From Arthonia radiata (lineage: Eukaryota; Ascomycota; Arthoniomycetes; Arthoniales; Arthoniaceae), in the NCBI GenBank assembly GCA_002989075.1, contig PSQN01000013.1, positions 1,274,379 through 1,338,378 of the forward strand: 64,000 nucleotides of DNA, given 5' to 3'. A program made the position numbers and the translations under genes. How positions within the stretch are numbered: the first letter of the stretch is position 1; every line of letters starts with the position of its first letter. The notes under the pieces are model-generated. The model was not told the DNA's origin. It made no database searches and saw only the letters and a list, made by a program, of their open reading frames with translations. Shown here piece after piece: positions 7,140-41,637 of the stretch.

Positions 7140-7823
7140 ATGACTCAATCCGACCCTCTCCTTCTCAAAGCAAAACGCAAACGTAACGAGCTCGAGCTCG
7201 AGAATGATCACGATCACATTTTGGACGACTCTCCACTGACCTCATGTCATGAAGGCGTTCCGAGCGCCACCAATGAAGATCCCGCCACGGCGGATATAGA
7301 AGATCATTCAGAAGGCTGGCGCAGCCCAACATCTGCAGCATCGCGATCGCGATCATCATCGTCATCCTTCGAGCTTCAGCCGGGGCCTCCCATCACAACG
7401 CCGCTCGCACGCTCGCTTCCGCTCGAGTTGGTACTGCAAATACTCAGTCTCCGCCTAGCAAATGACATTGAAGAGTTCGCCAAATCAGACCCCACTCATG
7501 GTCTCATGTCAGCAAGATGGCCTTATGCTGAGCGCGTTTTCGGTATTGCAACATTTTCGAAGGTGTGCCTCGAGCTAGTGCAAGCTAGTAAGAGTGAGCA
7601 CAAGAAGCGTGTCGTGCTTTTGAAAGAGCCCAATCAGCGCTTAGAATTGGTGGGGGACATGTGGAGAGCAAACCAGTTTTTGCACGACTATGTGAGAAAC
7701 TACTTGTACCAGGACAGCTCCAGGTTCGCTTCTCGGATGGTCGACTTCAACATTGAGTGGATGGCCGAGCAAGTCGAGCGGGTGCACAAGAAGTTAGACC
7801 GGATATCGAATTGTATGCTCTGA
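7140..7823 (+). CDS. F-box-like array protein 1
   Basis: First member of the plus-strand paralog array, 227 residues from the ATG at 7140; an upstream in-frame ATG at 7053 would add 29 low-complexity Ile/Thr residues. The N-terminal ~90 residues are charged and Ser-rich and probably disordered. Block 1 is SLPLELVLQILSLRL (LPLE about residue 93). Block 2 is GIATFSKVCLELVQ (about 135-150). Block 3 is an amphipathic C-terminal helix (about 203-222). The L-P-x-E helix followed by a VSR-like helix resembles a degenerate F-box, the Skp1-binding module of SCF ubiquitin ligases. This is inference from the motif pattern. It lies 2.9 kb before the next member and has the longest tail of the left-hand group. 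Confidence 0.7.
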   Translation: MTQSDPLLLKAKRKRNELELENDHDHILDDSPLTSCHEGVPSATNEDPATADIEDHSEGWRSPTSAASRSRSSSSSFELQPGPPITTPLARSLPLELVLQILSLRLANDIEEFAKSDPTHGLMSARWPYAERVFGIATFSKVCLELVQASKSEHKKRVVLLKEPNQRLELVGDMWRANQFLHDYVRNYLYQDSSRFASRMVDFNIEWMAEQVERVHKKLDRISNCML

Positions 7824-10677
7824 AGCCGTCGGGACCGCCACTGTGCATTGAACTGATGCAAGAAACGGAAATGTCGAGACTAGTCTTTACATCGAAGCAT
7901 TGTACGCCACCGTGAGAACGCTCATTGCGACCAGCCTCTTATCGAGCTTACGCGCTGCATTATGTCCTCCATGTCAAAATAGCAACCAGGTAATCCAATC
8001 CAGAAGCTCGCCCACCCTGAGCTATGCGACTTGACGCATCAGACCGACTGCGGTGCTATCGAAAGTGGTATTTAGCAGCGTGATAGACACGCTCTAGCTG
8101 CTAGTAGAAGAGTACGTGATCAAAGCCAATAGACCCAAAGTCATGAATGGTATGCGTTTGAAACTGCTGAGCTACCAAAACCAAGAGACAAAGGCGATCA
8201 TAAGGGTACAGGCGATGAAGGTGTTTGCGGTGGAAATTTGAAAGTCCAACTCCCGAAGGCTAAAGAACACTGTAACTAGATACACGGTCATCAATACGGG
8301 GTTCCGGGCGGAAAAACACTAGTACGGATCGCTTACTACATCAACATGATAATCTTACACGCTTGTCAAGTGTCTGTCAGCAGACGTTCGGTAAACACGA
8401 GCATGACGCCCTACGCCCTATTGTCTATACTGCCGTATGGATTGTTTCAGACGGATGTGTCGTAGGCTGTGTTTATGTACGTATATGATCCAACTCCAGG
8501 TCAAAGAGCGGCGACGTATCTTCTTCTGCGCTTTTACTGCCACGTGTGATTGAGGTTACTTGTTATGAGGGCCGTGATGAAAAGGGAGGTGTGATCCGCT
8601 CGAAAATCCAGGTAGAGCAAGACGCGCAATAACCATAAACACTCTGCAGCATCTTCTGCAGTTTTCAAAACAGCTCAGCAAGATTCTACAGCGTGTTCTA
8701 GTTTAAAGTTGAAGCCGGCTCGACGTCACGATCAACTACTGCCATGTACGTATACTTCGCCACCGCCGTTACCACACGCACGGTGCTGATCGCCGTAGGA
8801 GTTCCTACACACGTGTACCGAAAGAGAGTGCGTACAGCTTTCTAAATCATGCGACCATTCATAAATACTTCGATAATGGCGGCATGGAACATGTGCATCA
8901 CTTTCATGTCAGAAAGAGGAGGTTCGAAGGCTGGACAGGCGGTCATTTCTATCACATAGTCTGTCATGGGAAAGAGGGAGAGCCTCATAAAGAACACGAG
9001 GTGCCGATAGATAAGAAAGAGTACAAAGCCCTCAGGGACGCGCATCCGGATGCTGCAGAAGTCGAGACGATACAATCAGATGAAGGGGCCTCTGACGTGC
9101 CGACGGAGAGGCCACGGAGGTCGGGGAATGGGCGGTGAGCGTTTGAGTCGTGGTGAATTGGGTGTGGATTTGCTCTGTTGGATTGAATTGCTGTTGTGCA
9201 ATAGGTTGTGAGACTGAATAAGCACATGCAAACCGCTTGACATCCAGCTCTGACATTGTGACGTGGCTGAATGACATTAGCAGAAAGCCAGGTTTTCTGC
9301 ACACATATATTTGATGCCTTCTGCAACCAAGCCGCGACCAGCGCTGTTGGGCGTGTTTGATAATGTTATGACACTAACGAGGTGCGGCCCGCTTGATGCG
9401 GATACGAGCGCAGCTTGCCGAAACAGTCTTTTGGGGGCTCGAAATAGCCACCTTGGCTCGGATAGAATGAGCACTGATCCTCCCAGCATACTATACTAAG
9501 TAGCAAAGATCGCTTCACTCGGACGCCATCAGGGTTGGACGGTTTGGACCTGAGTATGTTGAAAGGTAACCGCCAAAACCATGCTGCAGCAACCGGCTGC
9601 TGAGGGAAAGAGGCTATTGACGAGGACACCATAACCTCGAAACCCGCAAAGCATATGGTAAATGCGTACACTTCACCATGGGTCTCCTGAGGCGTACGGA
9701 CATTCCGAATGAACTTGTAGGAGGGTGAAATAGATCGTAGCGTGTCGACAAAATTCTGTGGATGAAGGTGTCCACCACGTCTGCTCATGAGGTTCTTAAA
9801 GAGGGAATTCCCAATCATTTACCCCTGAAGCTTGGCGGTCGCTCTGGACTGGGCGATCTTTGCCCACCACGAACGCTCTCACAAGCACACAAGGTCAATG
9901 TTGCCACCGTAATACCTCATTACATAGTGCTTGAAATCCTCTCGCTATCAGAAGCTTTACTGATCTAGCATTCGGCACTCAGACGCCCAACCGCCCGTGG
10001 CGCACGACAACGCTGACACCTTGCGGACGCGTGGCACTGATCGGTCACCTCGTCCAGCATCATGATCGCTTGCATCTGCAACTGTCGCTACTGCGACGAC
10101 TTCATCGTACGGGAAGGCCGCGTTCGAATTGGCGTGCTACAAAGACGAAGACCTAGTCGAAAGAGGAGGCTTTCCCAGTCATATAAAGTGCTCTCGAGCT
10201 ATCGCGCTGAGCATTGGGCAGGTTTTGCTAGCGGTGAAGAACAATAGACATACCATCTGCAGCTATTAATCAATCGGCAGTGCAATGCCCAACTCTCCCA
10301 GTCTGAAGGGGACAAGGGTCTAGGACGTAATCGCCGTCCTGTCGTCCATCCTCAAGATATGGAGCGCATAGCAGCTCTGAGTAGCTCTTGCTAGAGGGGC
10401 AGGTAACAGTATTATCAGCTATCGGGTGCGGCTGCTATTTGGGGATTAGTAAATGTGGTGAAGCACCAGGGTTGAGAGGCTGTCAAGGCGACCTCTCTGC
10501 GATGGCTGAACATTGCAAGGAAGCTTTTCATCGTGTCTCTACTCACTTGCCATCTTTCACATTTCACCTTCGCAGGCAGCACAGCTTTCTTCGCACCTGG
10601 TGAGATCTTGCACGCGCAGACTATCTCTGCGCAACCTGACACAGAAAGCTCACAATCTGTTACGCACATATCACCCA
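7824..10677. other. gene-poor gap inside the array
   Basis: A 2.85 kb gap between array members 1 and 2. Apart from the short ORF at 8884-9138 I see no supported gene. A 150-codon minus-strand frame at 9366-9818 has no family features. I found no L-P-x-E motif here that would mark a decayed array copy. Confidence 0.4.
8884..9138 (+). CDS. small charged hypothetical protein
   Basis: An 84-residue frame rich in His, Lys, Glu and Arg (starting MEHVHHFHVRKRRFEGW), with no low-complexity bias and a plausible ATG. No domain is recognised. It could be a real small gene, a single exon of a larger one, or chance. It does not carry the array family's L-P-x-E or VSR blocks. Confidence 0.3.
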   Translation: MEHVHHFHVRKRRFEGWTGGHFYHIVCHGKEGEPHKEHEVPIDKKEYKALRDAHPDAAEVETIQSDEGASDVPTERPRRSGNGR

Positions 10678-11088
10678 ATGGCGCGCGCGAAAGCTAGCCG
10701 CAAGAAACACGAACATGTTCACAAACGTCAAGCCCGAAAAGCACGAAGAACCTCCTTTCCCGGCCACAGCCTTCCGGTCGAAGTTGTTCTTCACATCCTC
10801 GGGTACGTAGTCGTCGGGTATCTGGACTACCAAGAAGTCGTCCGTGGACGCTTCAAACGCCGGCGCTTCGTCGCGCATGCACTGAGCTTAGCCACGGTAT
10901 CGAAAGCAGTGCTAAAGAGTACACGTGCTGTCTTATCTGAATGGCTGCACTTCCGGACCTGGAGGAGCTCAACTGTGGATGCTCCGGTCACTGCGACCAA
11001 GGATGAAGTGAAGCTCTTGGAAAGAAAGTTGCAGAGAACAATTGAATTGATAGCATCCGGCAAGAAGAGCGCAGGATCTGACCGATGA
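10678..11088 (+). CDS. F-box-like array protein 2 (basic tail)
   Basis: A 136-residue array member, one of the shortest. The start is set at the ATG at 10678; the frame is open upstream to 10513, but that part is unlike the siblings. Residues 1-25 are strongly basic (KKHEHVHKRQARKARR), a likely nuclear-localisation tail. Block 1 is SLPVEVVLHILGYVV (LPVE 32-35), block 2 ALSLATVSKAVLKSTRAVL (VSK 74-76), block 3 a short amphipathic helix about 108-127. With the next two genes it forms a basic-tailed subgroup. Adaptor function is inferred only. Confidence 0.7.
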   Translation: MARAKASRKKHEHVHKRQARKARRTSFPGHSLPVEVVLHILGYVVVGYLDYQEVVRGRFKRRRFVAHALSLATVSKAVLKSTRAVLSEWLHFRTWRSSTVDAPVTATKDEVKLLERKLQRTIELIASGKKSAGSDR

Positions 11089-11354: not shown

Positions 11355-11807
11355 ATGGCGCGCACAAAACCCACCCGGCAAAAGCGCAGACTCAAGCGTG
11401 CTCCCGAATTCAAACCCGATGTCTCGTCTATCTTGCATCGCATGCCGCACGATATCCTCTTCCATATCTTCGACCTCGTGCTGTCAGAGATACTGAGGCC
11501 TGCATATGCTCCTAACGGCTCATACTCCGTCCACCGCGGTGCTCAACGCATCGTGAGCCTGGCTTTGCAGTGCAAAACGACGCTTAGATATACGATCCGG
11601 TTTCTTGAAACATGGCTGAACAGCCATGAACCTCTCATGAAGGAAGAACATGAGGAACACGTTGTGCGATGGTGGCCATTGTGCTATTGTGATGTGTGCG
11701 AGGAGCAAATACGTCTGCAAGGCGAGGCTGCGAAGATCAAGATGGTGGGGAAGATAGTGGGGAAGTTTGGGAGGTTTGCGAGAGTGAGCGGTGAGCGGGC
11801 TGAGTAG
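11355..11807 (+). CDS. F-box-like array protein 3 (basic tail)
   Basis: A 150-residue array member, 266 bp after the previous one. It opens with a basic tail (TRQKRRLKRAP, residues 7-17). Block 1 is HRMPHDILFHIFDLVLSEIL (29-48), where MPHD replaces L-P-x-E. Block 2 is IVSLALQCKTTLRYTIRFLE (66-85). A short C-x-C-x-x-C cluster (110, 112, 115) lies in the C-terminal half; metal binding there is speculative. Block 3 is weak, with a Lys/Gly-rich tail. It is among the more divergent copies. Confidence 0.65.
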   Translation: MARTKPTRQKRRLKRAPEFKPDVSSILHRMPHDILFHIFDLVLSEILRPAYAPNGSYSVHRGAQRIVSLALQCKTTLRYTIRFLETWLNSHEPLMKEEHEEHVVRWWPLCYCDVCEEQIRLQGEAAKIKMVGKIVGKFGRFARVSGERAE

Positions 11808-12068: not shown

Positions 12069-12566
12069 ATGGTACGACCTTCGATCAAGGACGTTTACTT
12101 TCGCTCCAATGCTACTCGCAAGAAGTCAAAACGCCATTCTAGGAATCGAAGAAAGGAGGAGACCAATCAGCTCCTGTTCAAGTCTCGGATCGTACAGCGG
12201 CTGCCTCCTGAGATCGTCCGCCAGATCTTCGATCGTCTGTTCACTGACGAAACAGATATCGCCATTTTCGACGACAGTCAAGTGTCGGCGCGTGAATCAC
12301 TCAAGCGAATGTTGTTGATAGCATTCCTCTCAAGAGGACTGATGGCGCACGTGCTGGGGGCGTTGAGCGGGTGTCTGTCCGGGCTGACTCGAGAACTTGA
12401 GGAGATGCAACAGCGATCGCGACAGCGACATCAAGTAATAAGGCCGTACATGATACGTGATACGCTGACTCTTTGGATGAAGATTACCCTGTATGAAAGG
12501 AGGATCAAAGGTGTGACGAGGTTGGTAGAGCATTTCCGCAGGATTCTGGGCTTGGAGGAGACTTAA
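12069..12566 (+). CDS. F-box-like array protein 4 (basic tail)
   Basis: A 165-residue array member. The ATG at 12069 is chosen because it gives a tail like the two preceding genes; an in-frame GTG lies at 11892. Residues 15-31 are very basic (TRKKSKRHSRNRRKEE), a likely nuclear signal. Block 1 is RLPPEIVRQIFDRLF (LPPE 45-48), close to a textbook F-box start. Block 2 is MLLIAFLSRGLMAHVL (81-96), block 3 an amphipathic helix at 132-160. A TCACCTCG motif lies 113 bases upstream (11956), also seen before other members. Confidence 0.7.
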   Translation: MVRPSIKDVYFRSNATRKKSKRHSRNRRKEETNQLLFKSRIVQRLPPEIVRQIFDRLFTDETDIAIFDDSQVSARESLKRMLLIAFLSRGLMAHVLGALSGCLSGLTRELEEMQQRSRQRHQVIRPYMIRDTLTLWMKITLYERRIKGVTRLVEHFRRILGLEET

Positions 12567-12873: not shown

Positions 12874-13377
12874 ATGCCTGATCAGCACGCCATGGACGAT
12901 CCAGCTCAAGACCATGAAGCGTCAACAGCGGAAAACAAGTCACAGCAACAACAGCCTGCCAGCACAATATCTGCAGCTTATCGCTTTCCACTCGAGATCG
13001 TGCTTCAAATCCTCCATCACCGCGTCGACAAAGACATTCGGTAAGGCCTTGCCATGCTCCCACTTGCCGCTGCGGACGATTCGGAGAGGAACTTCGACAG
13101 GGAGGTGTTCCTCAGGGCGACGGTATCTAAACTGGTTATGAAGCAGGTGCATGGCACGATCAGAGGGTGGATGCAAGACCACCGCGAATTGGACTGGATG
13201 TATACTACCAGTACATGGAGCAAAGTCTGGCCCCACTGGAAGGGTGTGCTGGACCGCGGACATAAATTTCGGGTAGCTGTCAGGGGCGTCGAGAGATTCG
13301 AGGGACTTATCGGGAAGCTGGAGAGGATCCTAGAGTGTGAAGGCAGGAAAGTCGAGATCGAAGCAATCGGTGACTGA
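12874..13377 (+). CDS. F-box-like array protein 5 (one intron)
   Basis: Two exons, 12874-13040 and 13101-13377, with a 60-nt GTAAGG...CGACAG intron in phase 2; 147 residues. Without splicing the frame stops right after block 1, while the downstream frame starts exactly at block 2, so the intron is needed to rebuild the family plan. Block 1 is RFPLEIVLQILHHRV (FPLE 38-41), block 2 EVFLRATVSKLVMKQV (VSK 64-66), block 3 about 113-134. The N-terminal tail is Gln/Ser-rich. The intron position differs from that in the 39-40 kb pair. Confidence 0.65.
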
Positions 13378-13589: not shown

Positions 13590-14405
13590 TCACTCTTGCA
13601 ACGCTACACTAGTGCCCTGCAAACACAACTCTTCCATCACACCCTTCAACCTCCCCCCAACGAACGCCACAACCCCCTCTCTCATCTGCCTCCTCACTTT
13701 CTCCGCATCCCCATCCATCACATTCCCCAAAGCTTGAAAGCACCGCAGCTTCTTCGTCATCTCGAACAGCATGTCTCCCAGCGCGCCCAGATGCCTGTCC
13801 ACGACTTGCCTCGTGTACGCTGCCGCTTCTGGCGACGCACGCCCGGCGTTGCGCGCAGCGACTTCGTACTCATCCAGCCAGTAGTGCTTCGGCTTCTTGT
13901 CGGGCCGGGGCTCGTGAAGCGCCTTGGAGAAGAGATGTGAGAGCTGTAGGAGAATGTTGGGGAAGGTGCAGACGATGGGCAAGCTTGAGTATGACGACTT
14001 GGCGCGTCTGTGGGTGCGAGGCTTGTTGCGGTCTGCCCGGGGCTGGGTGGGTGGTTTGAAGGTTTTCGTAAGTGCGGTATGTACAGGCGAGGGCGCAGCT
14101 GCTTTGAGGGTATTCGAAGGCCGGGTGCCAGCGGGCTTGTCGGGAATGAGGATCGCGAAAGGGTTCGAAGTCGAGGTCGAGGCGGTGGTGCTTGCCAACG
14201 CCGACGTCGCTGGCGGAATCTGCGGCGTCCCGATGGGATTGCTTGCGACAGGACCTGGGCCTGCTGTGATATCTCTAGTTTGCCTAGTCTGCTGTGCACG
14301 CGTCGAAGAGCATAGATGCTTAAGATGCGATGGCACGTTTGTAGTGCCAGAGAGGATCTCAAAGGGTGGCAGATGCGACAAGTTGAGCTCGTCTGGGGAG
14401 AACAT
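13590..14405 (-). CDS. second paralogous family, protein A
   Basis: A 271-residue protein on the strand opposite to the array. It opens with 'LSHLPPFEILSGTTNVPSHL', a signature shared with the minus-strand neighbour at 14603-15430. It continues with a Pro/Ser/Thr-rich linker (about 35-140) and a helical C-terminal half that also aligns with the neighbour (KHYWLDEYEVAARNAG, then TRQVVDRHLGALGDML). The ATG at 14405 is preferred because it places the signature near the start, as in the paralog; the frame extends to 14507. No known domain is recognised. It shares no block with the F-box-like genes. Confidence 0.65.
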   Translation of the reverse strand: MFSPDELNLSHLPPFEILSGTTNVPSHLKHLCSSTRAQQTRQTRDITAGPGPVASNPIGTPQIPPATSALASTTASTSTSNPFAILIPDKPAGTRPSNTLKAAAPSPVHTALTKTFKPPTQPRADRNKPRTHRRAKSSYSSLPIVCTFPNILLQLSHLFSKALHEPRPDKKPKHYWLDEYEVAARNAGRASPEAAAYTRQVVDRHLGALGDMLFEMTKKLRCFQALGNVMDGDAEKVRRQMREGVVAFVGGRLKGVMEELCLQGTSVALQE

Positions 14406-14602
14406 GACTGTCTTGAGTAATACTCGGTGGGAGTACAGTAGCAGTAATGCTGGGTGAGAAGATACAAGCTGACTTGGTGAAGAGTCGTGTTTACAACGTG
14501 TTGCCATTCAAGCGACGCGACAAACTTGAGTTGTCACGGCAACATAGACCCCGCCATATGACAAACGCCTCCACTCAGCTGCAAACAGTCTTGTTCAGCC
14601 CA

Positions 14603-15430
14603 TTAACGCGTCAAATGGCTTTTAAGCATGAGGAGCGAACGCAGGGCCTTACATAAGCTCGTGCACTCGCCCATTAGCTTCCTCAGTTCTGACTTCGCTT
14701 CCTGTGAGGCATAGTGTCAGTATGTTGCACTCAGTATAGCATGGAAAGGGATGTCGTATGACCCCCAGGCAGCTTCGCTTGGCGAGCGCTAGCAATGTAC
14801 GCTTCGATGAATGTGGAACAGCAGGTGTATGTACAGTGGACTGACCTCGGGAACTTGATTGATCGCAGGTCGACGCTTCAGCTCTTGGCAGCGCGCCTTC
14901 TGCTCAGCCTCCAACATCTCGAGATGTCTGCCCAGCAGGGTTTGCACGCGCGTGTAAGCCGGCTTGGAGATATCCGCAGAAGCATACACGACGGCCAGAT
15001 ATAGCTGCACGCTCAAAACTCGTTGGCCGGTGTAATCAGGTATCATGACCCATGCGAAACAGTTGTTGACGGTGCGCTCCATGCTCTTTAGGAGGAAACG
15101 GTGTGTGTACCGTTCATGGTCAAGCAGAAGTGGCATGTAGAATGGGACGGTGACGGTTGGCATCATCAGGGTTTTCAGATTGGGCACGACGGGCCGAACG
15201 TTTCGGCTCCGCTTAGATGACTTCCATAGTGATCCTGAGGATGTATCGAAATTTGTGGCGCCTGCTGGCTGCGTACTGAAAATTTGGTAGCTCGGTTTGA
15301 AGTCGAGAACAGAAGCAAGGTTGATTTGAGATATTTGCAGTGGCAACGGCGTTCCTTCTGCATGAGCCTGAAGGTGGGGAGGTATGTTCCTGGTGCCGGG
15401 AAGGAACTCGAAAGGTGGTAGATGAGACAT
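14603..15430 (-). CDS. second paralogous family, protein B
   Basis: Paralog of the 13590-14405 protein: it starts 'MSHLPPFEFLPGTRNIPPHL' and shares the C-terminal pattern (VQLYLAVVYASADISK, then TRVQTLLGRHLEMLEAE). Suggested exons on the minus strand are 15430-14846 and 14701-14603, with a 144-nt GTCAGT...CACAG intron carrying a CTGAC branch-like site. This gives 227 residues and a helical end starting EAKSELRKLM. Unspliced, the frame runs on to 14789 with an unlikely tail. The start at 15430 is chosen to match the paralog. The intron is less sure than the gene. Confidence 0.6.
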
Positions 15431-15670
15431 GACAGCGCCTGCGGGCGCAATGAGTGCGATACAAGTCTTCCTCAACGTGCGAGTCGTCATGTTCTACAAG
15501 GTGTGCGCTAATCACGTGCAAGAGTTGTGGGCGCTCTTCACACTTCAATGACGTATACATGTGAAAGGTGCATTAGGCTGCCTTCGGTCTTGGGCCGCAA
15601 CCGTTTTCCTAGTGCAAGATTACAACTCAGTCGCAAGCTCGCAAGGAACAACTTGCTCAACGCAAGCACC

Positions 15671-16153
15671 ATGGCCAAACGAGAATCACAAACACGCCAG
15701 CGTCTCTCGAATGGTTTCTTGTGCAAGATAATGAGCTTGTGCCTAGACTCCAAGCTGACCGACGAAGCGTCCGGTCTCTGGTCGCCTTACTTCGGAGCTT
15801 ATCCAGCCAAAGATTATCTTCGTCTGGCTCTGACGCTTGCTCAGACATCGCGGGTCTGCTGCAAACAAATCGAGCAAACCGTTCTGGACCATGTCGAGCT
15901 CTTGCGCAACGAGCAGGAAGACCTACGTCGGCAATACGTGGACAACGGACGGGAGCTATGGGGCGCTGAAGAAGTTGCAGAGATGGTGGCCAAGGCTGAG
16001 CGCTTACGCAGCGCTATGTTGAGAGGAAGAGGATTGCTCAAGGAAGCTCGCAAAGTGGCCGACGTCCTTACTGGAGTGAACCTGAACAGCGTGCGGGAGG
16101 GAAGTGATGTCGCAGACGCGTTGAAGGATCTGCAAGTCAGTGCGCGGGACTGA
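15671..16153 (+). CDS. F-box-like array protein 6 (no L-P-x-E)
   Basis: A 160-residue array member starting at the ATG at 15671 (GCACCATGG context). Block 1 is recognisable by its helix pattern (GFLCKIMSLCLDSKL, 15-29) but the L-P-x-E signature is lost. Block 2 is LALTLAQTSRVCCKQIEQTV (52-71, TSR 59-61). It is followed by a long charged coiled-coil-like stretch (71-130) and a short helical tail. It may have lost the presumed Skp1-contact motif while keeping the rest. Placement in the family rests on block 2 and position in the array. Confidence 0.6.
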   Translation: MAKRESQTRQRLSNGFLCKIMSLCLDSKLTDEASGLWSPYFGAYPAKDYLRLALTLAQTSRVCCKQIEQTVLDHVELLRNEQEDLRRQYVDNGRELWGAEEVAEMVAKAERLRSAMLRGRGLLKEARKVADVLTGVNLNSVREGSDVADALKDLQVSARD

Positions 16154-17833: not shown

Positions 17834-18127
17834 TTATTTCTTCCCCTTGCCCTTGACCTCGTGATACTTGTCTTTTGCCGCATCGATCGGATGTGCCAGT
17901 GACCAAAGCGCCCTTTCCACCTTGTCAAGGTTGTCTGGTATACGAGGGACGTACGCCGACTGGTTCGAACCCGATGATACGCCAACGTGCGTTCCATCCG
18001 CATTACGCTTCATTTTGATCTTGTATTCGGAATCGATGTAGTCAATCGAGCCGTCCGCGTTTTGCTTCTGTTCGGACATTCGGCTATCACGGGGGTCGGG
18101 CTTGCTGGAGCTGGCTTGGCCGGACAT
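17834..18127 (-). CDS. small hydrophilic protein
   Basis: A 97-residue frame of balanced, hydrophilic composition: it opens MSGQASSSKPDP, has a repeat-like pair 'ADGSIDYIDSEYKIKMKR'/'ADGTHVGV', and a lysine-rich end (KGKGKK). No domain is recognised. It lies on the strand opposite to the array and belongs to neither paralogous family. The sensible codon-level composition suggests a real small gene, but this is unproven. Confidence 0.45.
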   Translation of the reverse strand: MSGQASSSKPDPRDSRMSEQKQNADGSIDYIDSEYKIKMKRNADGTHVGVSSGSNQSAYVPRIPDNLDKVERALWSLAHPIDAAKDKYHEVKGKGKK

Positions 18128-19706
18128 GTTGCGTACAAGGAAGATTTGAGACGAATAAAGTAAATGATGGTGGACTAGTCAGGTAATCTGTGGGTTTGTT
18201 GGAGACTAAACATGTTTCTCTACGCCCAGCAAGCGGTCTAAATACCTTCAGAGCAGCGTTGTGCAACGTGTTGGCCTTACGCATGCGTAACAACCGGTTC
18301 AATAGAATCCGTTTGTTGCAAATGCCAGACTAGGCAGCGATCATACACTGTACACTTGTCCTCGCTCCGAATGCATCCGAAGCGTGTTCATTCGTGGGTA
18401 CAGCATGTGATGCTGTTTGCAAGCGTAAGCATGGTAAGATAGGATATTTGAGCGCATGATACTGTTGAAGCGCGAGAGTCAGCGGACTCCTGAGGCTTCC
18501 GCGTTTCTTCAGGCTCCAGCGAACCTATCGCGAAACTGGATCAGTGAGTAGCTGACGTCAGCTATGATCGCATGATCGACTACGCAAATCAAGAAAGTGT
18601 GCATTTTTGTGCCGCAGGCCAGTAGCTTGGAACAGCCTCCGCTGAATACCTTTGGTACTTGATACGTAGGGTGAAGGTTGTAGAGTGATGATACGAGAGA
18701 CTCCTTGGAAGTCGGCATAAACAAGATAGAGACAAGGGTCGATGGCAAAGGACCTACGGTTCGTTTAGAACTTCCCAAACGGTTTGAGCGAATGCTAGGG
18801 CCAATACCACACCTATGAGATAAGCACATTCAATACACTTACCCGGGGGCTACCGGACTGGGCTACATAAGCAAACGTTTACATATCACGGAACCGTTTG
18901 TGATAGCGCTGACTTCCGGCTGTTATAGGCTGGATGCGTCCGCAAAAGCGATCGTTGACGTTGTGGGTCACGCCCTACGGAAGACACGACGGGAGACATT
19001 GTTGCACGCTCTAGATATACAGCCGAGTCGACAACGTGTCATCCCTCGTTAATACTCTCGATCATGCATGGAAGGGATTGAGACCTAGATTTTCGGATCG
19101 TTCGGCAGACAGTTGGATCAGTCGGCTCACTGGCAGGGTCCTCAAAGAGTCAGATTTAGTCAGCGTTTGCCCTGCCACCGACTTACTCAATGCAGCTTGG
19201 AATCTCCATGATTTTCGACTAGAACTCGGGTAGCTTCATGAAGCTGTTAGAAAGTTGAATTTTTCAATTACCAAGCAGAAGAGTTGGGCATAATAGGGGC
19301 CCATGGCGCTCGCAACTGCCTCCAAACACGTCGAGATAGGTGCCACGTATTTAGACTCAACAACCTAATCTTGGCTTCACCCCTATCTTTCCCGCATTTC
19401 CACCTGCCTCATTACATATCCTTACATCTCGATATTCTTATGATTCAAGTTGCAAATGCAATTGGGTTAGAACAGCTGTTTGCCATCATGTTTCGAAGCC
19501 AGTATCCGAGATGCGAGTGGGTATTGCGCTTTTACGCGTGTTCACTCGATGCAAGGTGATGACTCTCCGGCAGAGGCATTGTGCCTCACCTTGCGTTTTC
19601 CGCGCCGCTTTTCCTTCCACGAGCGATCCTCTTTGCGCCGCTACATAAACATGTATCTCGAATTGTGGACGAATTCAAAACATTTCAACTTTTTACAGCT
19701 TCAACA
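18128..19706. other. gene-poor gap inside the array
   Basis: A 1.6 kb stretch. A minus-strand frame (18509-18829) and a few plus-strand frames are open, but none shows family motifs. The last ~100 bases, pyrimidine-rich, are the presumed promoter and leader of the next array member. Confidence 0.4.
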
Positions 19707-19902: not shown

Positions 19903-20248
19903 CTGTGTTGGTGATGGAGCGGTAACCACCATATTTAGCCTCTTACCATACCTACCACGCTTTTGGGCCCCTAGTTACCGGTAACCGTAGTGTATACCTA
20001 CTATTAGGTATCTGCTAAGGATTGCCTAAACTAGTATTTAGTAGTTTTCTCTGGCCCTCTAATATATACCAAACTATTATATACTAAAGAACGTAACCTA
20101 TCTTTACCTATTTAGGCTAGTGCGTAGCTACTACAGCGTACACAGACAAAATATACGGTAACTAGAGCCGTAGGAGGGCTTATTATACCTACTATCTACC
20201 ACAGTAACTATACCTACCAAATACCTTACCGCTCCATCACCAACACTG
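19903..20248. mobile_element. hAT-like MITE, copy 1
   Basis: A 346-bp non-coding element with terminal inverted repeats of about 22 bp (CAGTGTTGGTGATGGAGCG and its complement; the left end here reads CTG instead of CAG). It is flanked by perfect 8-bp duplications (19895-19902, 20249-20256). Eight-bp duplications and CAG-starting ends are hAT hallmarks. There is no transposase, so mobility would need an enzyme from elsewhere. It matches copy 2 (36142-36488) along its whole length, with many C-to-T and G-to-A differences that leave copy 1 AT-richer. It interrupts an array gene. Confidence 0.85.
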
Positions 20249-20869: not shown

Positions 20870-21352
20870 ATGTCGGATCCCCCAGCAGCCGTGCCACGAC
20901 CAATGTCAAGATCAAAGCCAAACCCAAGGCTCCCAAACGAACTCATTCTCAAAATCGCCACGTTCTACCTCGACAACGCATTCCAAGCCGCCATCAAAGT
21001 CTCGCTCAAGGGGTTCCGCCGACGCCCTCTTTTAGCGGCGGGCGACTACACAAAAGACGTTCTCAATCTTGCGCGTGCATCTCGACTCTGCCATGATTCG
21101 GCTCGTCGTGCGATACCCCGTCACCTCGATGACTGCTCGGAAGAGATCGCAACCCTCGACATTCAGATCAAGGTTACAACAGAGGTTCTGTCGGAGTTCA
21201 ATCAATTCTTGTTGCAGGTGAAACGCTCTGTCCCTCATGTATACGGACTGATTAAGGATCGCGACGCGTGGAAAGAACTTCTTCGAAGGATGCAGTCTGC
21301 ACAGCGCCGTGTTGAGGCATTGGGCGGCCGCCGAGCTCCAGTGGCTAGCTGA
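20870..21352 (+). CDS. F-box-like array protein 9
   Basis: A 160-residue array member and near sister of the transposon-split copy before it. Block 1 is RLPNELILKIATFYLDNAF (LPNE 21-24). The spacer contains LKGFRRRP and DYTKDVL, also seen in the sister. Block 2 is LNLARASRLCHDSARRAI (65-82), block 3 DAWKELLRRMQSAQRRVEAL (132-151). This is a clear example of the family plan. The ATG at 20870 is the first of the frame and lies in an ATCAACATG context. Confidence 0.8.
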   Translation: MSDPPAAVPRPMSRSKPNPRLPNELILKIATFYLDNAFQAAIKVSLKGFRRRPLLAAGDYTKDVLNLARASRLCHDSARRAIPRHLDDCSEEIATLDIQIKVTTEVLSEFNQFLLQVKRSVPHVYGLIKDRDAWKELLRRMQSAQRRVEALGGRRAPVAS

Positions 21353-22813: not shown

Positions 22814-23521
22814 ATGGAGATGCGCCGCCAACGTGCGCGCGCTACGTTTTCTTGGTCCAACCGACTATCCAAAACGACTGCACACGGCAACGTGTCAAAA
22901 GAAGCAGCCATCATAACTCCTCTACCAAAAGGACAGCTTCCAGTCGAGCTGATAATCAAGATTATCACCGTCCACCTGGATGCAGCTTATTACGATCTCG
23001 AGGATTCGATACGCCAGATATTACCAACCTGTGTAGATATACACGGGCTACTCGATCGCAGCAAGTTCACTCGCGAAAATGCTGCCAACGTACGAAGCTA
23101 CACCAACGCCGCGCTTACGCCAGCCCTGGTGTCTCAGAATTTTCTTCAGTACACCCGCTACGTCGCAGTTCGCCGATATGAAGAGGTCGAACTTGAGAGC
23201 AAAGACTTGGCGGAGCGCTTGCGTGAGACCTGCAATGTGTCGCTACCTAAGGTGCTGACGGGTCAGGGTATACTCGATTTCAACGACGGAAAGCACGCGG
23301 AGCGCCAGCCACTGCTCCAAGAGTTCAACCTTTGGGGCGGTATTGAGAGAAGTGTCCAGGTCTCGTGGAAGAAGCTCAATCGTATGTCGCTGGCTGTCAG
23401 CGTCGGAAATCGCAGCTTGTTAGAGCATTCGGAAGAGAAAGAAGCTCGCTTCGGCAAGGAGGCGGTCCGACGTAGAATCACAGAGGGGCGTGTCTTACGA
23501 AAAGCACTACATTATATGTAG
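22814..23521 (+). CDS. F-box-like array protein 11
   Basis: A 235-residue array member. Block 1 is QLPVELIIKIITVHLDAAY (LPVE 42-45). The spacer to block 2 is longer than average (60-100). Block 2 is ALTPALVSQNFLQYTRYVAV (100-119), block 3 EFNLWGGIERSVQVSWKKLN (170-189), here with the Trp pair typical of the central copies. A charged tail of ~40 residues follows. The N-terminus has a basic stretch (MRRQRAR). Confidence 0.75.
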   Translation: MEMRRQRARATFSWSNRLSKTTAHGNVSKEAAIITPLPKGQLPVELIIKIITVHLDAAYYDLEDSIRQILPTCVDIHGLLDRSKFTRENAANVRSYTNAALTPALVSQNFLQYTRYVAVRRYEEVELESKDLAERLRETCNVSLPKVLTGQGILDFNDGKHAERQPLLQEFNLWGGIERSVQVSWKKLNRMSLAVSVGNRSLLEHSEEKEARFGKEAVRRRITEGRVLRKALHYM

Positions 23522-25271: not shown

Positions 25272-25853
25272 ATGCCGCTCTCCAGCGCGACGTCCAAAAC
25301 GCAGACGGGCACTGCGACGGGCACCGTGCTAAAGCACCAAAACCTTCCAATCGAGCTGCTCCTCGAGATCATTACCATTCAACTCGACAGCGCACTTCAC
25401 GAGCTGGAAGACGCAATCCGTAACAACCTACAGCCAGTGCTCATATCCAACCCGCACAGGCCGAACGCGTATCACAATTTCTGGCTCAATGACTTTTACG
25501 ACTATTGCCAGGGCGCTCTCAAGTTGGCGTCCGTTTCTCGAATGTTTTTGCGACAGTCATGCGCTGTCCTAAACCACCATCATCGGTATTCGCAGCGATT
25601 CAAAAACGAGGCAGAGCAGCATGCGGTGCAATCGACACACCGGTGGCCATCTGGCACGTTCCGTGAGGTCGATGGGATGAGGTTCTCCTTGACTGCTCAG
25701 TCTCGATCATTTCTCGACGAGCTGGAGATCCGGGTCACTGTCAACGGCTGCGTCGTAGCTGCCAAAGAGAAGCTCCAGGATCTCTTTGCGGAATCGGAAA
25801 GGGTGGGCGATGGGAATGTCATCGCCGGCTTGAAACACGAGAAGACCATATGA
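25272..25853 (+). CDS. F-box-like array protein 13
   Basis: A 193-residue array member. A Ser/Thr-rich tail precedes block 1, NLPIELLLEIITIQLDSAL (LPIE 25-28). Block 2 is ALKLASVSRMFLRQSCAVL (82-100), the best textbook VSR helix in the array. Block 3 is about 147-172 (VAAKEKLQDLF). The start is the only ATG before block 1 and lies ~230 bases after the palindromic-end element, which may therefore have landed in its promoter region. Confidence 0.8.
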   Translation: MPLSSATSKTQTGTATGTVLKHQNLPIELLLEIITIQLDSALHELEDAIRNNLQPVLISNPHRPNAYHNFWLNDFYDYCQGALKLASVSRMFLRQSCAVLNHHHRYSQRFKNEAEQHAVQSTHRWPSGTFREVDGMRFSLTAQSRSFLDELEIRVTVNGCVVAAKEKLQDLFAESERVGDGNVIAGLKHEKTI

Positions 25854-34978: not shown

Positions 34979-35518
34979 ATGACGTCCACGCCGAAGACGC
35001 CGCTGCCAAGTCTGCCGAACGAGCTCATCGAGAAGATCATCATTCACCGTCTCGACGACCACTTGAGCAGCATCATTGAGGTTTTGATAAAGTTTGCAGC
35101 CCGGCGCACGAACAAAAAGCTGAAGGCCGTTAGAGAGGCGTACACCACACTATTGTGGGGTATGGTTACGCAGATGTCAGCTTTGGCTGCAGCATCCCAC
35201 ACGTGCCGTCGAATCGTCGTTGACAAAGCCATTCCTGAGGCAATCTCGTTTCTCCAGGAGCACAAGACGACCATTGAAAGCGAAGTAGCGTTGTATGGCC
35301 AAGTGAAACGGATCCTGGGCGTTGAGATCCACGCAGACAATTTCACCAAGGATGAAGGGTATATGATGCGGGAAATGAGCATTTTCAGCTTGGATCTCTG
35401 CTTGAAGCACTTGCGGAAGATACAGGCTGCGCTTCGAAGGATCTTTGGTGAGCTCCCAGACAACACGAGCAGCGCGAATGTAGAGACAGTGTGGATCCCA
35501 TGGAAAGCGTATCTGTGA
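34979..35518 (+). CDS. F-box-like array protein 22
   Basis: A 179-residue array member from the ATG at 34979. Block 1 is SLPNELIEKIIIHRLDDHL (LPNE 12-15), closely like member 23 (QLPNELLLKIIYHRLDSHL). Block 2 is MSALAAASHTCRRIVVDKAI (66-85), block 3 about 128-152 (SLDLCLKHLRKIQAALRRIF). A TCACCTCG motif lies at 34832-34839, 147 bases upstream. Confidence 0.8.
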   Translation: MTSTPKTPLPSLPNELIEKIIIHRLDDHLSSIIEVLIKFAARRTNKKLKAVREAYTTLLWGMVTQMSALAAASHTCRRIVVDKAIPEAISFLQEHKTTIESEVALYGQVKRILGVEIHADNFTKDEGYMMREMSIFSLDLCLKHLRKIQAALRRIFGELPDNTSSANVETVWIPWKAYL

Positions 35519-35654
35519 GCGAAGATGGTGCTGGCAAGATACGAGCGATGAGTTGGGGTTGCAAAGCGGATATGCAGGTGTCGTAAAGACCAGGCACATT
35601 AGCGAAGATGAGGAGACTCGAAGGTCCGTCTGCTGTATGCTGGGCTCGACACGA

Positions 35655-35808
35655 ACGAGGTTAATGAGACTCCAACGAGACCCCAACGAGAGGTAGTGAG
35701 ACGACAACGGGACCCCATCGAGACTCCAACGAACAGCCCCAACGAGGCTCCATGGAGATTCCAACGAGACTCCATACAGACTCCATACAGACTCCCAAGA
35801 GACGCCGC
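35655..35808. repeat. degenerate minisatellite
   Basis: A run of imperfect units built on AACGAGACTCCA and variants (GAGACCCCAACGAGA, CCATCGAGACTCCAACGA, ACTCCATACAG twice in a row). Units are about 10-18 bp and drift in length, so copy number is unclear, probably 9-12. It lies in a non-coding spacer. Confidence 0.6.
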
Positions 35809-36141: not shown

Positions 36142-36488
36142 CAGTGTTGGTGATGGAGCGGTAACCACCACATTTGGCCTCTTACTATACCTACCACGCT
36201 TTTAGGCCCCTGGTTACCGGTAACCGTGGTATATACCTACTATCGGGTATCTGCTAAAGATTGCCTAAACCGGTATTCGGTAGTTCTAACTGGCCCCTCG
36301 ATATACACCCGACTATACTCTACGCGAAGAGCGTAACCTATTCTTACCTGTTTGGGCTAGTGTGTAGTTACTACGGCGTATATAGACGAAATATGCGGTA
36401 ACTAGGGCCGTAGGAGGGCTTACCATACCTACTATCTACCACGGTAACTATACCCACCAAATACCTTAACGCTCCATCACCAACACTG
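36142..36488. mobile_element. hAT-like MITE, copy 2
   Basis: A 347-bp element of the same family and orientation as 19903-20248. The inverted ends (CAGTGTTGGTGATGGAGCG and complement) are intact, with one mismatch just inside, and the 8-bp duplications GTGTACCG are perfect. It keeps more C and G at positions where copy 1 has T and A. It lies in a spacer and breaks no evident gene. No coding capacity is present. Confidence 0.85.
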
Positions 36489-37175: not shown

Positions 37176-37676
37176 ATGAGCTCCAAGCTATCGAAAGTCG
37201 TGCCACAGCTGCCGAACGAGCTCCTGCTAAAGATCATCTATCACCGCCTCGACAGCCATCTTGACAAGCTTCGCGTCGGGTCGTGGACGCTCGCGCGAAC
37301 CATAGGAGGAGGTTTAATTCCGGAGGATGTCGAAGCCTACATACAGGCCTATGGCGCCCAGCTCTACAACATTGGGACAGCATCGCATTTGTGCCGAGAA
37401 ATGGTTGCCGACGTAGTGCTCCCGGCACACCTTGCATACCTCAATCAATCGATCACCAGATTTCAGAACGAGGTCGAATCTACCAATGCCGCCAGAGTCA
37501 ACCACGACACGACTCGCAGTGTTGCAAATGTGCTCCAGCGGTACAAGATGTACAACGCACATACATGCTTGAGACAGCTCAACGCCATTCGAGACAAGGC
37601 CATGCACGTTCAAGCTACACTTCAAAAGATTGGCGGAGGGGCTCCAATGAACGCGGATTCGATATCATTGTGTTGA
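37176..37676 (+). CDS. F-box-like array protein 23
   Basis: A 166-residue array member. Block 1 is QLPNELLLKIIYHRLDSHL (LPNE 12-15), block 2 LYNIGTASHLCREMVADVVL (63-82), block 3 about 135-155 (HTCLRQLNAIRDKAMHVQATL). It is close to member 22 despite the 1.7 kb of transposon and repeat sequence between them. This suggests the pair was adjacent before those insertions. The start is the first ATG (CACCAGCATGAG). Confidence 0.8.
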   Translation: MSSKLSKVVPQLPNELLLKIIYHRLDSHLDKLRVGSWTLARTIGGGLIPEDVEAYIQAYGAQLYNIGTASHLCREMVADVVLPAHLAYLNQSITRFQNEVESTNAARVNHDTTRSVANVLQRYKMYNAHTCLRQLNAIRDKAMHVQATLQKIGGGAPMNADSISLC

Positions 37677-38915: not shown

Positions 38916-39160
38916 AGGCGAGGCGATGTGAGGGATGGTGGTGATTGCGTTGCGCAGTTGTGGCCGCATCTCTTCAGGTGCTCAGTAGGAATCGAGCTAG
39001 GAAGTGGCAGGCTTCATCCAGTGGCAAACAATGCAAGCGCTTATCCAGATATGGCAGCCAGATCTTGGCGTTCATCACCTTCGTGCTTCTTCTTCTGCAA
39101 GTCCTCTTCTTCGCATCTTCATCATAAGCCTCACAAGAAAATCGTTCCGAACAGGCAATA

Positions 39161-39801
39161 ATGGAGCAAACACCTGCGACTTCAAGGTCCACCGCCAGCA
39201 AATCGAGCCTCAAAGCACAGCTCCCTGCCGAGCTCATCTTCCACATTCTGGCCCTCTACCTTCAATCAATTGTTGAGAAGACGCGACCCCTACCTGAGCG
39301 CCCCATGAGAGGTTATGGTTGCCCATGTTCTGGTCACCGAAGAACACGTAACATCCTGGAGACGTGTACCAGTCCCGAGTACTATCGTGCTGAGATCGTC
39401 AAGATTGCCACGTGAGTCGCAGTCAACCCTCCAGTCAAGCGAAGTTCCGTGCTAATGTCGATCCAAGGCTGTTTCGCAGTTGCTTCATGCACGTGAAGCG
39501 TTTGCTGGATGATCATATGGAGACGGTGCGGAGAAAGTGGGACGTGCTTCACGCGACTTGCAAGGCGCGTGGCGCGTGGAGGCGTGCTAATAGAGAGTGG
39601 CCTGTTCGACCGACGGTGGATGTCATAAGCGAGGAGGAGCTGGCCACGGACTTCCTCGACGAGGAATTCGAGGATATCGCAGCTGTTTTGCAGACTGTGT
39701 GGGACTCGTTGTCAGTGTTCACTTGTCTTGAAGAGATGCTTGACGCATCCGGGCGTCTCGACTGCAGGCCGTACGTTGCGACAGGCGAGCGCGCTATCTA
39801 A
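39161..39801 (+). CDS. F-box-like array protein 25 (Cys cluster, one intron)
   Basis: Exons 39161-39411 and 39468-39801 with a 56-nt GTGAGT...GCTAATG...CCAAG intron, phase 2, giving 194 residues. Block 1 is QLPAELIFHILALYLQSIV (LPAE 21-24). The spacer has C54, C56 and C69 and then SPEYYRAEIVKIA, aligned with KYYCAHALRIA of the next gene. The intron interrupts block 2, which reads IVKIATLFRSCFMHVKRLL after splicing. Exon 1 is 251 nt, the same as in the next gene. The second exon ends in an acidic region and block 3. Confidence 0.75.
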
Positions 39802-40103: not shown

Positions 40104-40665
40104 ATGCAACAATCAGTCGCAATGCCACGGTCAGAAGCACCTAAACCCAAAGAGGCGAAGCTGCTGCCAGCGGAGCTCATTCTTCACATCTTGACCCTGT
40201 ACCTCAACGGTATCCTCGATGAAGCCTTTACAATCGGCCCGGACTCCGCCGAACACAATAACCTCGCGTGCCCAGGGGGCACAAGAGAACAGTTCGGTTG
40301 CCATGCTTGCCACGGACCCAAATACTATTGTGCTCATGCACTCAGGATCGCCAGGTAAACCAGGCCGGTAACGTCATTCGGCCAAAGCGCGATGTTGACA
40401 CATAAGCAGGTTATCTCGAGTCTGCTTTCAACACTTCCGCAAGGTCATCAGAGACCAGTCCAGGTATTTGCGGGACAAGTGGGCTGTGCTGTTTGACATC
40501 GTGATTGGCAGAGACGCGGGGTTGCCAGTCGAGAGTGATCAGGGGGCGAGCTCCGACAACGTGGCCGAGATGTGCAACACGGCGGTCGGAATGAATACTG
40601 TGTACCGACTGGCGGAGGGTTTCGAGTGTCTTCCCGAGCAAGTAGATGGTGTTGGGTCTGCTTGA
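40104..40665 (+). CDS. F-box-like array protein 26 (Cys cluster, one intron)
   Basis: Exons 40104-40354 and 40410-40665 with a 55-nt GTAAAC...AAGCAG intron, phase 2, giving 168 residues. Starting at 40104 gives LPAE at residues 21-24 and a 251-nt first exon, exactly as in the previous gene, which supports both starts. Block 1 is LLPAELILHILTLYLNGIL. The spacer has C56, C66, C69 and C76 plus two His (67, 70). Block 2 after splicing is ALRIARLSRVCFQHFRKVI. A CCACCTTCGTGCT stretch ~90 bases upstream matches one before gene 25. Confidence 0.75.
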
Positions 40666-41091
40666 TCGCGGAACAGGCGGGGCTTAACCCAGTGACTCTG
40701 GCGCAAGCGTGTCGCCATACGCAGACTAGATGAAAACAAGAGAGTGTGAATGACGAAAGGAGGGCGAGGATGAGTTGGCGGTGAAATGTGCCCAAAGGGA
40801 GGGTGATGTAGGCTGAAGTGGAGGCACTCATATCGGCTCACCGCCTCACAGCTCAAGCAGCGTCAGTGCACTGTCAGCACCTCTTCCCTTTGGAATTTCA
40901 AATCTGCCCGCATCGCGTTCAGTTGCCACCTCGACAAATCTTGTTTGCTTCTGCCAAGCCTTTTCGCAGCTCAGTCGCTCGACTGCTGGGTGACGTCTCG
41001 AATGCAAGGAGCTTCTCATCTTCTTGCGCTGTCGGTGTCTTACGCACCTTCCGAGCCGTATGATTCGGTACGATAACATTGCGTGTTCAAG

Positions 41092-41637
41092 ATGAACACT
41101 CCACCGCCACGCTCGCGCACCATACAGGTCAGAGTCGTCACACCTCGCCGCCCACGCTCAGCAGCCAGCCGCCTCCCCTCGAAAGTCATCGCACGCATCC
41201 TCCGAGACCGCCTCAATGACCGCTTTGACGTACTATACGACAGTCCCACGTACTCGCACTACATTGAATACAACACCTCCGTACTCACGATCGCTCGCCT
41301 CTGCTCTCCCTGCTTCCGACTTGCGGTAGAGTCAAATGACAGTCACATCACTTCAGTCAGAAAGGAATACAACAGAGTCGTTCGCTCTCTCGGCATTCTT
41401 CAGAGCAAGCGCGCCAAGTACAAGAAGAACGCAGCTCGATACGCCACACAGATCAGCGACCTCACGAATGAGATCGATAATGAGACCGAGCGTCGTGGGA
41501 TACTACTGGAGGCAGCGTTGTGGTTGGAGAAGGCTCAAGAGGGTTTGGTGAGGGCAAGAGAGAGACTGGAGAGGTCCGAGGAGGGTGATGAGGACGTGCC
41601 TGATGTCATTGAGTGGCGAAACTGGGACTGTGCCTGA
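41092..41637 (+). CDS. F-box-like array protein 27 (last member)
   Basis: A 181-residue member closing the array, starting at the ATG at 41092 (a GTG lies nine bases upstream in frame). The tail is Pro/Arg-rich. Block 1 is RLPSKVIARILRDRLNDRF, with LPSK (28-31) instead of L-P-x-E. Block 2 is VLTIARLCSPCFRLAVESN (64-82), followed by a long charged coiled-coil-like helix and block 3 (LEAALWLEKAQEGLVRARERL). The convergent ELMO-domain gene ends 125 bases downstream. Confidence 0.75.
   Translation: MNTPPPRSRTIQVRVVTPRRPRSAASRLPSKVIARILRDRLNDRFDVLYDSPTYSHYIEYNTSVLTIARLCSPCFRLAVESNDSHITSVRKEYNRVVRSLGILQSKRAKYKKNAARYATQISDLTNEIDNETERRGILLEAALWLEKAQEGLVRARERLERSEEGDEDVPDVIEWRNWDCA

What the first reader, a model, noticed from the sequence alone, without database searches (positions are those of the whole stretch)
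7140..41637. A 27-member, single-strand tandem array of F-box-like genes
All 27 genes are on the plus strand within 34.5 kb and share an L-P-x-E helix, a VSR-like helix and a C-terminal amphipathic helix in the same order, while the rest diverges strongly. In F-box families such arrays are known in plants and nematodes as rapidly evolving substrate receptors. One this dense in a fungus, sitting between housekeeping genes, may be an undescribed lineage-specific system (substrate-specific degradation, allorecognition or defence). The array and motifs are seen directly; the F-box link and roles are inferred.
Basis: partly seen in the sequence, partly recalled or inferred. Interest (0 to 1): 0.92.

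Follow-up and report, generated by a model that had tools for sequence, protein, structure and literature searches.

The report
Old fungal array of F-box-like genes
A stretch of what is most likely a fungal chromosome carries 27 related, very diverged small genes side by side that look like distant relatives of F-box proteins, which pick other proteins for destruction; the array is real, but the F-box identity is only partly supported.

Summary
The array is real: 27 homologous plus-strand genes at 7140-41637, between alpha-tubulin and an ELMO-family gene. Half-trained profiles recover 25 of 26 held-out members at E <= 4.3e-4. Corrections: m05 has an in-frame stop (or a 60-nt intron), m08 is split by a hAT-like MITE, m21 changes frame near its end, and two minus-strand genes at 13590-15490 may be diverged kin. 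Neighbours are most alike (0 of 10,000 shuffled orders), so the array grew by tandem duplication, but the seven close pairs tested are 27-35% identical with near-saturated synonymous sites: no recent copy.

The F-box link is partly supported. For: sub-threshold Pfam F-box matches in 7 of 23 trimmed members (0 of 23 shuffled), four of five signature positions kept, profile match to F-box helix 1 (0 of 200 shuffles). Against: no curated hit, weak match to helices 2-3, no F-box listed by Foldseek, L-to-S/C spacing 43-67 instead of 24. Best reading: an old family of divergent F-box-like adaptors with a stretched linker and a variable helical end as target receptor; Skp1 binding is untested.

The parts
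7140..7823 (+). m01, F-box-like array gene
   Evidence: family profile 95.3 bits (full-model scores of members are by construction, held-out values in the observation check); LPLEL at 7416
10678..11088 (+). m02; best Pfam F-box-like match of the family
   Evidence: 77.3 bits; PF12937 E=0.0049 on trimmed domain, below cut-off
11355..11807 (+). m03 (MPHDI instead of LPxE)
   Evidence: 67.6 bits; E 0.072 when held out
12069..12566 (+). m04
   Evidence: 77.2 bits; PF12937 0.032 and PF00646 0.08, below cut-off
12874..13377 (+). m05, interrupted: in-frame TAA at 13042, or a 60-nt intron 13041-13100
   Evidence: two ORF pieces 38.6 and 51.6 bits; ungapped in-frame match to m01 across the stop
13590..14507 (-). 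possible inverted, diverged member
   Evidence: 9.9 bits, 0 of 2000 shuffles; absent from the even half model, 0.11 with the odd one; no Pfam match
14789..15490 (-). possible inverted, diverged member; shares an N-terminal LPPFE motif with the previous gene
   Evidence: 13.8 bits, 0 of 2000 shuffles; BLASTP between the two 1e-07; half models 0.34 and 0.0024
15671..16153 (+). m06 (LPxE lost: LSNGF)
   Evidence: 89.2 bits
16756..17274 (+). m07
   Evidence: 100.7 bits
19707..20528 (+). m08, split by a hAT-like MITE
   Evidence: two pieces 27.2 and 10.1 bits; element
19903..20248 (.). hAT-like MITE inside m08, with inverted ends and a flanking 8-bp repeat
   Evidence: boundaries read by eye from its output
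20870..21352 (+). m09 (alignments used Met 20903)
   Evidence: 123.8 bits
21925..22452 (+). m10, modelled by AlphaFold2 from Met 21946
   Evidence: 117.9 bits; pLDDT 85.1, pTM 0.75
22814..23521 (+). m11 (alignments used Met 22820)
   Evidence: 125.8 bits
23870..24439 (+). m12; F-box-like_2 match spans both motifs
   Evidence: 130.1 bits; PF13013 0.021, below cut-off
25272..25853 (+). m13
   Evidence: 139.1 bits
26876..27511 (+). m14
   Evidence: 130.5 bits
28172..28702 (+). m15
   Evidence: 110.3 bits
29315..29890 (+). m16
   Evidence: 124.2 bits
30411..30962 (+). m17
   Evidence: 121.9 bits
31232..32113 (+). m18 (alignments used Met 31352)
   Evidence: 116.3 bits
32333..32806 (+). m19
   Evidence: 81.6 bits
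33234..33701 (+). m20
   Evidence: 88.8 bits
33960..34403 (+). m21; the last helix seems to continue in another frame after about 34290
   Evidence: 82.5 bits; three-frame reading by eye
34979..35518 (+). m22
   Evidence: 111.8 bits
36142..36488 (.). second copy of the hAT-like MITE, intergenic, with its own flanking 8-bp repeat
   Evidence: 86% identical over 346 columns; boundaries read by eye
37176..37676 (+). m23
   Evidence: 108.3 bits
38382..38915 (+). m24
   Evidence: 98.7 bits
39161..39801 (+). m25, two exons, predicted intron 39412-39467
   Evidence: 58.5 and 52.3 bits for the two ORF pieces; intron
40104..40665 (+). m26, two exons, predicted intron 40355-40409 at the same place and phase as in m25
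   Evidence: 63.1 and 38.5 bits; BLASTP with m25 3e-24
41092..41637 (+). m27 (LPSKV)
   Evidence: 106.4 bits

Best explanation
An old tandem array of 27 (possibly 29) paralogous all-helical proteins in what is most likely a filamentous fungus. Each has a short N-tail of low model confidence, an L-P-x-E helix, a variable linker, a helix ending at an S/C turn, a long helix, and a last long amphipathic helix. The most likely mechanism, inferred: the N-terminal part is a divergent F-box (alpha1 = LPxE helix, alpha2 and alpha3 = the helices on either side of the S/C turn, with the alpha1-alpha2 link stretched by about 20-40 residues) that docks on Skp1 of an SCF ubiquitin ligase, and the weakly conserved C-terminal helix pair binds a different target in each paralog, so that the array is a repertoire of target receptors. 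Shown: homology, tandem origin, motif conservation, decline of conservation from helix 1 to the end of the long helix, a confident helical model. Inferred: intracellular location (no signal peptide seen by eye, not tested), Skp1 binding, ubiquitylation, targets.
For: Homology and array. Tandem growth: neighbours 22% identical on average against 18% for genes five or more places apart, 0 of 10,000 shuffled orders; FastTree groups contiguous genes such as m11-13, m14-16, m18-20, m21-23 and m24-27, many nodes weakly supported. F-box: sub-threshold PF12937 in 6 of 23, PF13013 in 2 of 23 and PF00646 in 1 of 23 trimmed members (7 distinct members; two of the PF12937 matches only at E 3.3 and 3.9), none in 23 shuffled ones; the m12 match to PF13013 runs from the LP to past the S/C turn. 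Signature positions L/M 24 of 26, P 25 of 26, I/V 26 of 26, S/C 24 of 26, as listed for F-boxes in PMC2699434 (passage). hhalign against 15 F-boxes of solved structures: 78%, score 29.3 against at most 15.3 in 200 column shuffles, present in both halves of the family (61% and 72%). Mean pairwise identity 32% in helix 1, 20% in the next, 17% and 10% in the two halves of the long helix, 14% in the last.
Against: No scanned member reaches a Pfam cut-off. The single best Pfam match of the trimmed set is KorB at 0.0023, better than F-box-like at 0.0049, and a shuffled member reaches 0.0089 with an unrelated family, so one match alone means little. The profile match is essentially helix 1; the helix 2-3 part alone scores 9.0 and 2 of 200 shuffles reach it. 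An HMM of the 15 F-boxes gives no member better than E 0.75, and four non-member ORFs rank above all members. Foldseek lists no F-box among the 50 rows shown (of 642) for the full model, nor in the 30 rows for the trimmed one. S/C lies 43-67 residues after L instead of 24, and leucine 20 is one residue late (1 of 26 exact, 22 of 26 at +1). DUF3420 matches the same helix in 3 of 23. Nothing bears on targets.
Confidence: 0.5

Rival explanations
1. A family of small helical-bundle proteins unrelated to F-boxes; the LPxE start is a common helix cap and the resemblance to F-box helix 1 is convergent. They could be scaffolds or regulators with no part in ubiquitylation.
For: Confident all-helical models without a listed F-box hit; F-box similarity limited to helix 1; no member better than E 0.75 with an F-box HMM.
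Against: F-box models recur among 24,736 Pfam models in the real domains and in none of 23 shuffled ones; the S/C position is kept in 24 of 26 at the start of the long helix; one Pfam F-box-like match spans both motifs.
Confidence: 0.33
2. The proteins are 2EXR-like or other fungal LPxE-helix domains, a known and common kind that diverged beyond its model.
For: Recalled, from no call: 2EXR also opens with an LPxE-type helix and has a later R-rich helix at a comparable distance.
Against: 2EXR is in none of the Pfam lists for the 23 single-exon members or for m05 and m26, at E <= 5 or 10; HMMER's filters drop most weak matches.
Confidence: 0.1
3. A decaying relic: most copies are no longer functional.
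For: m05 stop, m08 MITE, m21 frame change, m06 motif loss.
Against: Twenty-two of 27 read as one open frame without a sign of damage and two more with one short predicted intron each, although synonymous sites are near or at saturation; NG86 dN/dS of the five computable close pairs is about 0.39-0.43.
Confidence: 0.07

Closest known systems
F-box domain (Pfam PF00646, PF12937) of SCF substrate receptors
   Same: Order of three helices, L-P start, I at 16, S/C before the third helix, N-terminal position, variable C-terminus.
   Different: Linker between alpha1 and alpha2 longer by about 20-40 residues, leucine 20 one place late, longer helices, no recognised LRR or WD40, no curated hit, no F-box listed by Foldseek.
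F-box-like_2 (Pfam PF13013)
   Same: Match of m12 covers LP to the S/C turn over 60 profile positions, so this model has a comparably long spacing.
   Different: Only 2 of 23 members match, E 0.021 and 0.081, below cut-off.
KSS/KSL F-box antidotes of Caenorhabditis (PMC12680543; abstract and passages seen)
   Same: Clustered, fast-diverging adaptors whose F-box has partly passed beyond sequence recognition.
   Different: Those carry a solenoid, have a predicted Skp1-related partner and reported toxin degradation; here there is a short helix pair, no linked toxin is recognised, and binding is untested.
Fungal F-box sets: 74 in Aspergillus nidulans (PMC9744329, abstract start in a listing), 31 in Macrophomina phaseolina (PMC7991009, abstract)
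   Same: Fungal substrate receptors.
   Different: The M. phaseolina abstract reports no gene duplication among them; this one locus alone holds 27 paralogs, possibly 29.

Membership tests
F-box protein | Pfam F-box family model above its curated cut-off | tested here: not met
   best 17 bits against 24.3 (m02); 25 of 27 members scanned: 23 single-exon ones plus m05 (putative intron removed) and m26; m08 and m25 not scanned
F-box protein | Conserved positions 8 L/M, 9 P, 16 I/V, 32 S/C | tested here: met
   24, 25, 26 and 24 of 26; positions from a passage of PMC2699434; position 32 only if the longer linker is allowed
F-box protein | Position 20 L/M and S/C 24 residues after L (domain of 40-50 residues) | tested here: not met
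   L/M exact 1 of 26, at +1 22 of 26; spacing 43-67 in 25 of 26, and 27 in m05 only if its putative intron is removed (47 if read in frame)
F-box protein | Three-helix F-box fold | tested here: inconclusive
   helix order agrees but no F-box listed by Foldseek; no positive control was run and coordinates were not at hand
F-box protein | Binding to Skp1 within an SCF ligase | not testable with these tools
   no complex prediction offered, no genome of the organism held
F-box protein | Profile homology to known F-boxes | tested here: inconclusive
   helix 1 clear (0 of 200 shuffles), helices 2-3 weak (2 of 200)
F-box-like_2 (PF13013) | Model above cut-off | tested here: not met
   15.3 bits against 21.6, m12
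2EXR (fungal LPxE domain) | Any match to the Pfam model | tested here: not met
   absent from the family lists
DUF3420 | Model above cut-off | tested here: not met
   3 of 23, best 15.9 bits against 24.9, same helix as the F-box matches

The most novel reading that the evidence does not exclude
The array is a fungal counterpart of plant and nematode F-box repertoires: a long-lived bank of 27-29 Skp1 adaptors of a new stretched-linker type, each with its own helical target-binding pair, used to destroy foreign or non-self proteins such as those of mycoviruses, transposons or incompatible partners, and kept divergent rather than renewed by recent duplication.
Probability: 0.12. Interest if true: 0.85.

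Novelty: new variant of a known kind. Interest (0 to 1): 0.58.

Why it matters
If these are Skp1 adaptors, one fungal locus holds about as many receptors as some whole fungal F-box sets (31 in M. phaseolina, PMC7991009 abstract), with an F-box form that current models miss; fungal F-box counts would then be underestimates, and fungi would have a clustered receptor repertoire like those of plants and nematodes. If they are not F-boxes, it is still a large gene family for which no curated Pfam domain was found. Either way the array shows tandem growth followed by long maintenance instead of recent turnover, which can be tested at once by looking at the interval between alpha-tubulin and ELMO in sister species.

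Tried and rejected
Relatives elsewhere: the family alignment was too variable for the collection search; m13 alone found nothing in prokaryote or viral contigs (0 of 136 and 0 of 11 candidates confirmed). By their descriptions these collections hold prokaryote and viral sequence, so absence means nothing about fungi. The window's own genome is not held.

A profile search of PDB sequences gave only designed proteins for the full family (8 rows, best 0.11) and one chance hit for the trimmed domain (E 1.1). Foldseek against viral models gave nothing below 0.04 (50 of 709 rows listed). KorB, RHD3, BAR, PX and similar single Pfam matches were taken as helical chance matches.

A shared promoter was looked for in 300 bases upstream of the 27 starts against 100 random sets. 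The hexamer CTCTTC is in 15 of 27 (5.3 expected; highest count of any hexamer in a random set 12) and TCACCT in 12 of 27 (2.7 expected); 7- and 8-mers do not exceed the random maxima. I read CTCTTC as an ordinary pyrimidine tract and did not pursue it.

An intron was first assumed in m05; it gave a near-canonical spacing of 27, which looked like strong F-box evidence. That was withdrawn when the in-frame reading proved to align to m01 without a gap (spacing 47).

Literature: ten searches (the first two returned nothing) listed no title or abstract start about a tandem F-box array in a fungus; most papers were seen only as listings. One passage of PMC11412873 tabulates an F-box orthogroup with the number 28 among Dothideomycete families; I did not check what that number counts.
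Full report
What is there. The flanks are eukaryotic and most likely those of an ascomycete fungus (inference): GPI2 and alpha-tubulin on the left; ELMO/CED-12, ribulose-phosphate 3-epimerase, a CDP-alcohol phosphotransferase, an alpha/beta hydrolase and an RNase T-type exonuclease on the right (8 of 10 flank ORFs scanned had a Pfam match). Their provisional starts are a median of 1050 bases apart (677-3538). Twenty-two read as a single open frame without a sign of damage; m25 and m26 need one short intron each, at the same place and phase, just before the S/C turn; m05, m08 and m21 are discussed below.

Is it more than chance? Yes. BLASTP among 26 members gives partners at E <= 0.01 for 25 of them (all but m27). 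Models trained on half of the family find 25 of 26 held-out members at E <= 4.3e-4 among 1616 six-frame ORFs; m03 is at 0.072. The two pieces of m08, never used in training, are also found, the second only weakly (0.0054 and 0.15). No plus-strand ORF outside the list reaches E 1.

Corrections. The plus-strand rule is perhaps not strict: two minus-strand genes inside the array score 9.9 and 13.8 bits with the family model, against at most 5.9 and 8.0 in 2000 residue shuffles each (1542 and 1637 of which gave any score), and are related to each other by their N-termini (1e-07). Against kinship: BLASTP of the two against the members gives nothing better than 0.21, and with the half models they score 0.0024 and 0.34 (the one at 14789) and 0.11 or nothing (the one at 13590). 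m05 has one TAA in the same frame as both motifs; its frame aligns to m01 without a gap across that codon, so I favour a nonsense change, though a 60-nt GT-AG intron is possible. m08 is split by an element with inverted ends and an 8-bp flanking repeat; a second copy, 86% identical, lies at 36142-36488 with its own 8-bp repeat; by ends and repeat length this is a hAT-type MITE (recalled criteria). m21 seems to continue the last helix in another frame after about 34290 (by eye).

History. Adjacent members are more alike than expected (mean identity 0.222 against 0.177 for genes five or more places apart; 0 of 10,000 shuffled orders), and a tree groups contiguous runs, several nodes weakly. Yet the seven close pairs tested are only 27-35% identical. 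NG86 gives dS 1.4-2.4 for five of the seven and is undefined (saturated) for two; dN/dS in the five is about 0.39-0.43. With such dS the ratios are rough, but they speak for constraint on the whole protein, not pervasive positive selection. So this is not a young, fast-turning array; it is old, or it diverged very fast long ago.

Anatomy. With 23 members as alignment, AlphaFold2 models m10 at pLDDT 85.1 and pTM 0.75 as five helices: 26-46 (LPxE helix), 48-55, 60-74, 78-113 and 128-165. The trimmed domain of m02 gives three helices, 11-32, 35-49 and 53-75 (pLDDT 82.6, pTM 0.64). In both the S/C position lies at the break before the long helix. Conservation falls from 32% mean pairwise identity in helix 1 to 20% in the helix before the turn, 17% and 10% in the two halves of the long helix, and 14% in the last; the N-tail (20%, first Met included), linker (14%) and loop (12%) are low. 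Commonest residues: L24, P25, E27, I32, L37, Y66, A74 and S77, each in 20 to 26 of 26; H91, E145 and R158 in 15 or 16. The concentration in helix 1 and at the turn is what a shared partner at the N-terminus and private partners at the C-terminus would leave; that step is inference.

F-box or not. For: among 24,736 Pfam models, F-box-like, F-box-like_2 and F-box are matched by 6, 2 and 1 of 23 trimmed members (7 distinct members, two of the F-box-like matches at E 3.3 and 3.9), all below cut-off; with full-length members the counts are 3, 1 and 0 of 23. One shuffle of each of the 23 matches none of them and no family twice. Four of five signature positions listed in PMC2699434 (passage) hold: 24, 25, 26 and 24 of 26. 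hhalign with 15 F-boxes of solved structures gives 78% and score 29.3 against at most 15.3 in 200 column shuffles, with halves of the family at 61% and 72%, thirds at 73%, 27% and 45%, 65% without m02, m03, m04 and m12, and the reversed family at 0.1%; the trimmed alignment against five F-boxes gives 56%. Leaving out the linker columns gives 88.5% over helices 1-3 in the expected register (0 of 200 shuffles), but I chose that cut by eye.

Against: the helix 2-3 part alone is weak (2 of 200 shuffles reach it). The best single Pfam match of the trimmed set is KorB (0.0023), ahead of F-box-like (0.0049), and a shuffled member reaches 0.0089 with an unrelated family, so only the recurrence counts, and the members share ancestry. 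An HMM of the F-boxes finds no member better than E 0.75 and ranks four unrelated ORFs above all members; 17 of the 45 rows shown are members' pieces. Foldseek shows no F-box in the 50 of 642 rows listed for the full model or the 30 for the trimmed one; without a positive control for so small a fold this is weak but real negative evidence. The spacing from L to S/C is 43-67, not 24, and leucine 20 sits one residue late. DUF3420 also matches the same helix in 3 of 23. The m12 match to F-box-like_2 does span both motifs over 60 profile positions, so long-spaced F-box-like domains appear to be known to Pfam.

Verdict. As mechanism I favour divergent F-box-like Skp1 adaptors with variable helical target-binding ends (0.5), over an unrelated helical family (0.33). 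Work 'like an F-box' is plausible; membership is not established, since two defining features were tested and not met. Nematode KSS antidotes are a precedent for clustered F-box proteins whose F-box has diverged past easy recognition (PMC12680543, abstract and passages). No link to allorecognition or defence was found. No fungal genome other than this window could be searched, so lineage specificity and copy-number change remain open.

Noticed in passing
19903-20248 and 36142-36488: Two copies, 86% identical, of a hAT-like MITE with 8-bp flanking repeats; one splits m08, the other is intergenic.
   Followed up: yes
13590-15490, minus strand: A pair of genes opposite to the array that share an N-terminal LPPFE motif and weakly match the family profile.
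   Followed up: partly
upstream 300 bases of the 27 starts: Hexamers CTCTTC (15 of 27) and TCACCT (12 of 27) are more frequent than expected (5.3 and 2.7).
   Followed up: no
35654-35803: Imperfect tandem repeats between m22 and m23, among them an 11-bp unit, 12.5 copies at 35666-35803.
   Followed up: no
26380-26479: Direct repeat of 33 bp, 94% identical, copies starting 67 bp apart, between m13 and m14.
   Followed up: no
51074-52012 and 58619-59656, minus strand: ORFs with the domains of unknown function DUF7587 (2.4e-21) and DUF3632 (8.8e-38).
   Followed up: no
8713-9138 plus, 9366-9818 minus, 17834-18130 minus: ORFs inside the array interval, not members of the family, without Pfam match.
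   Followed up: no
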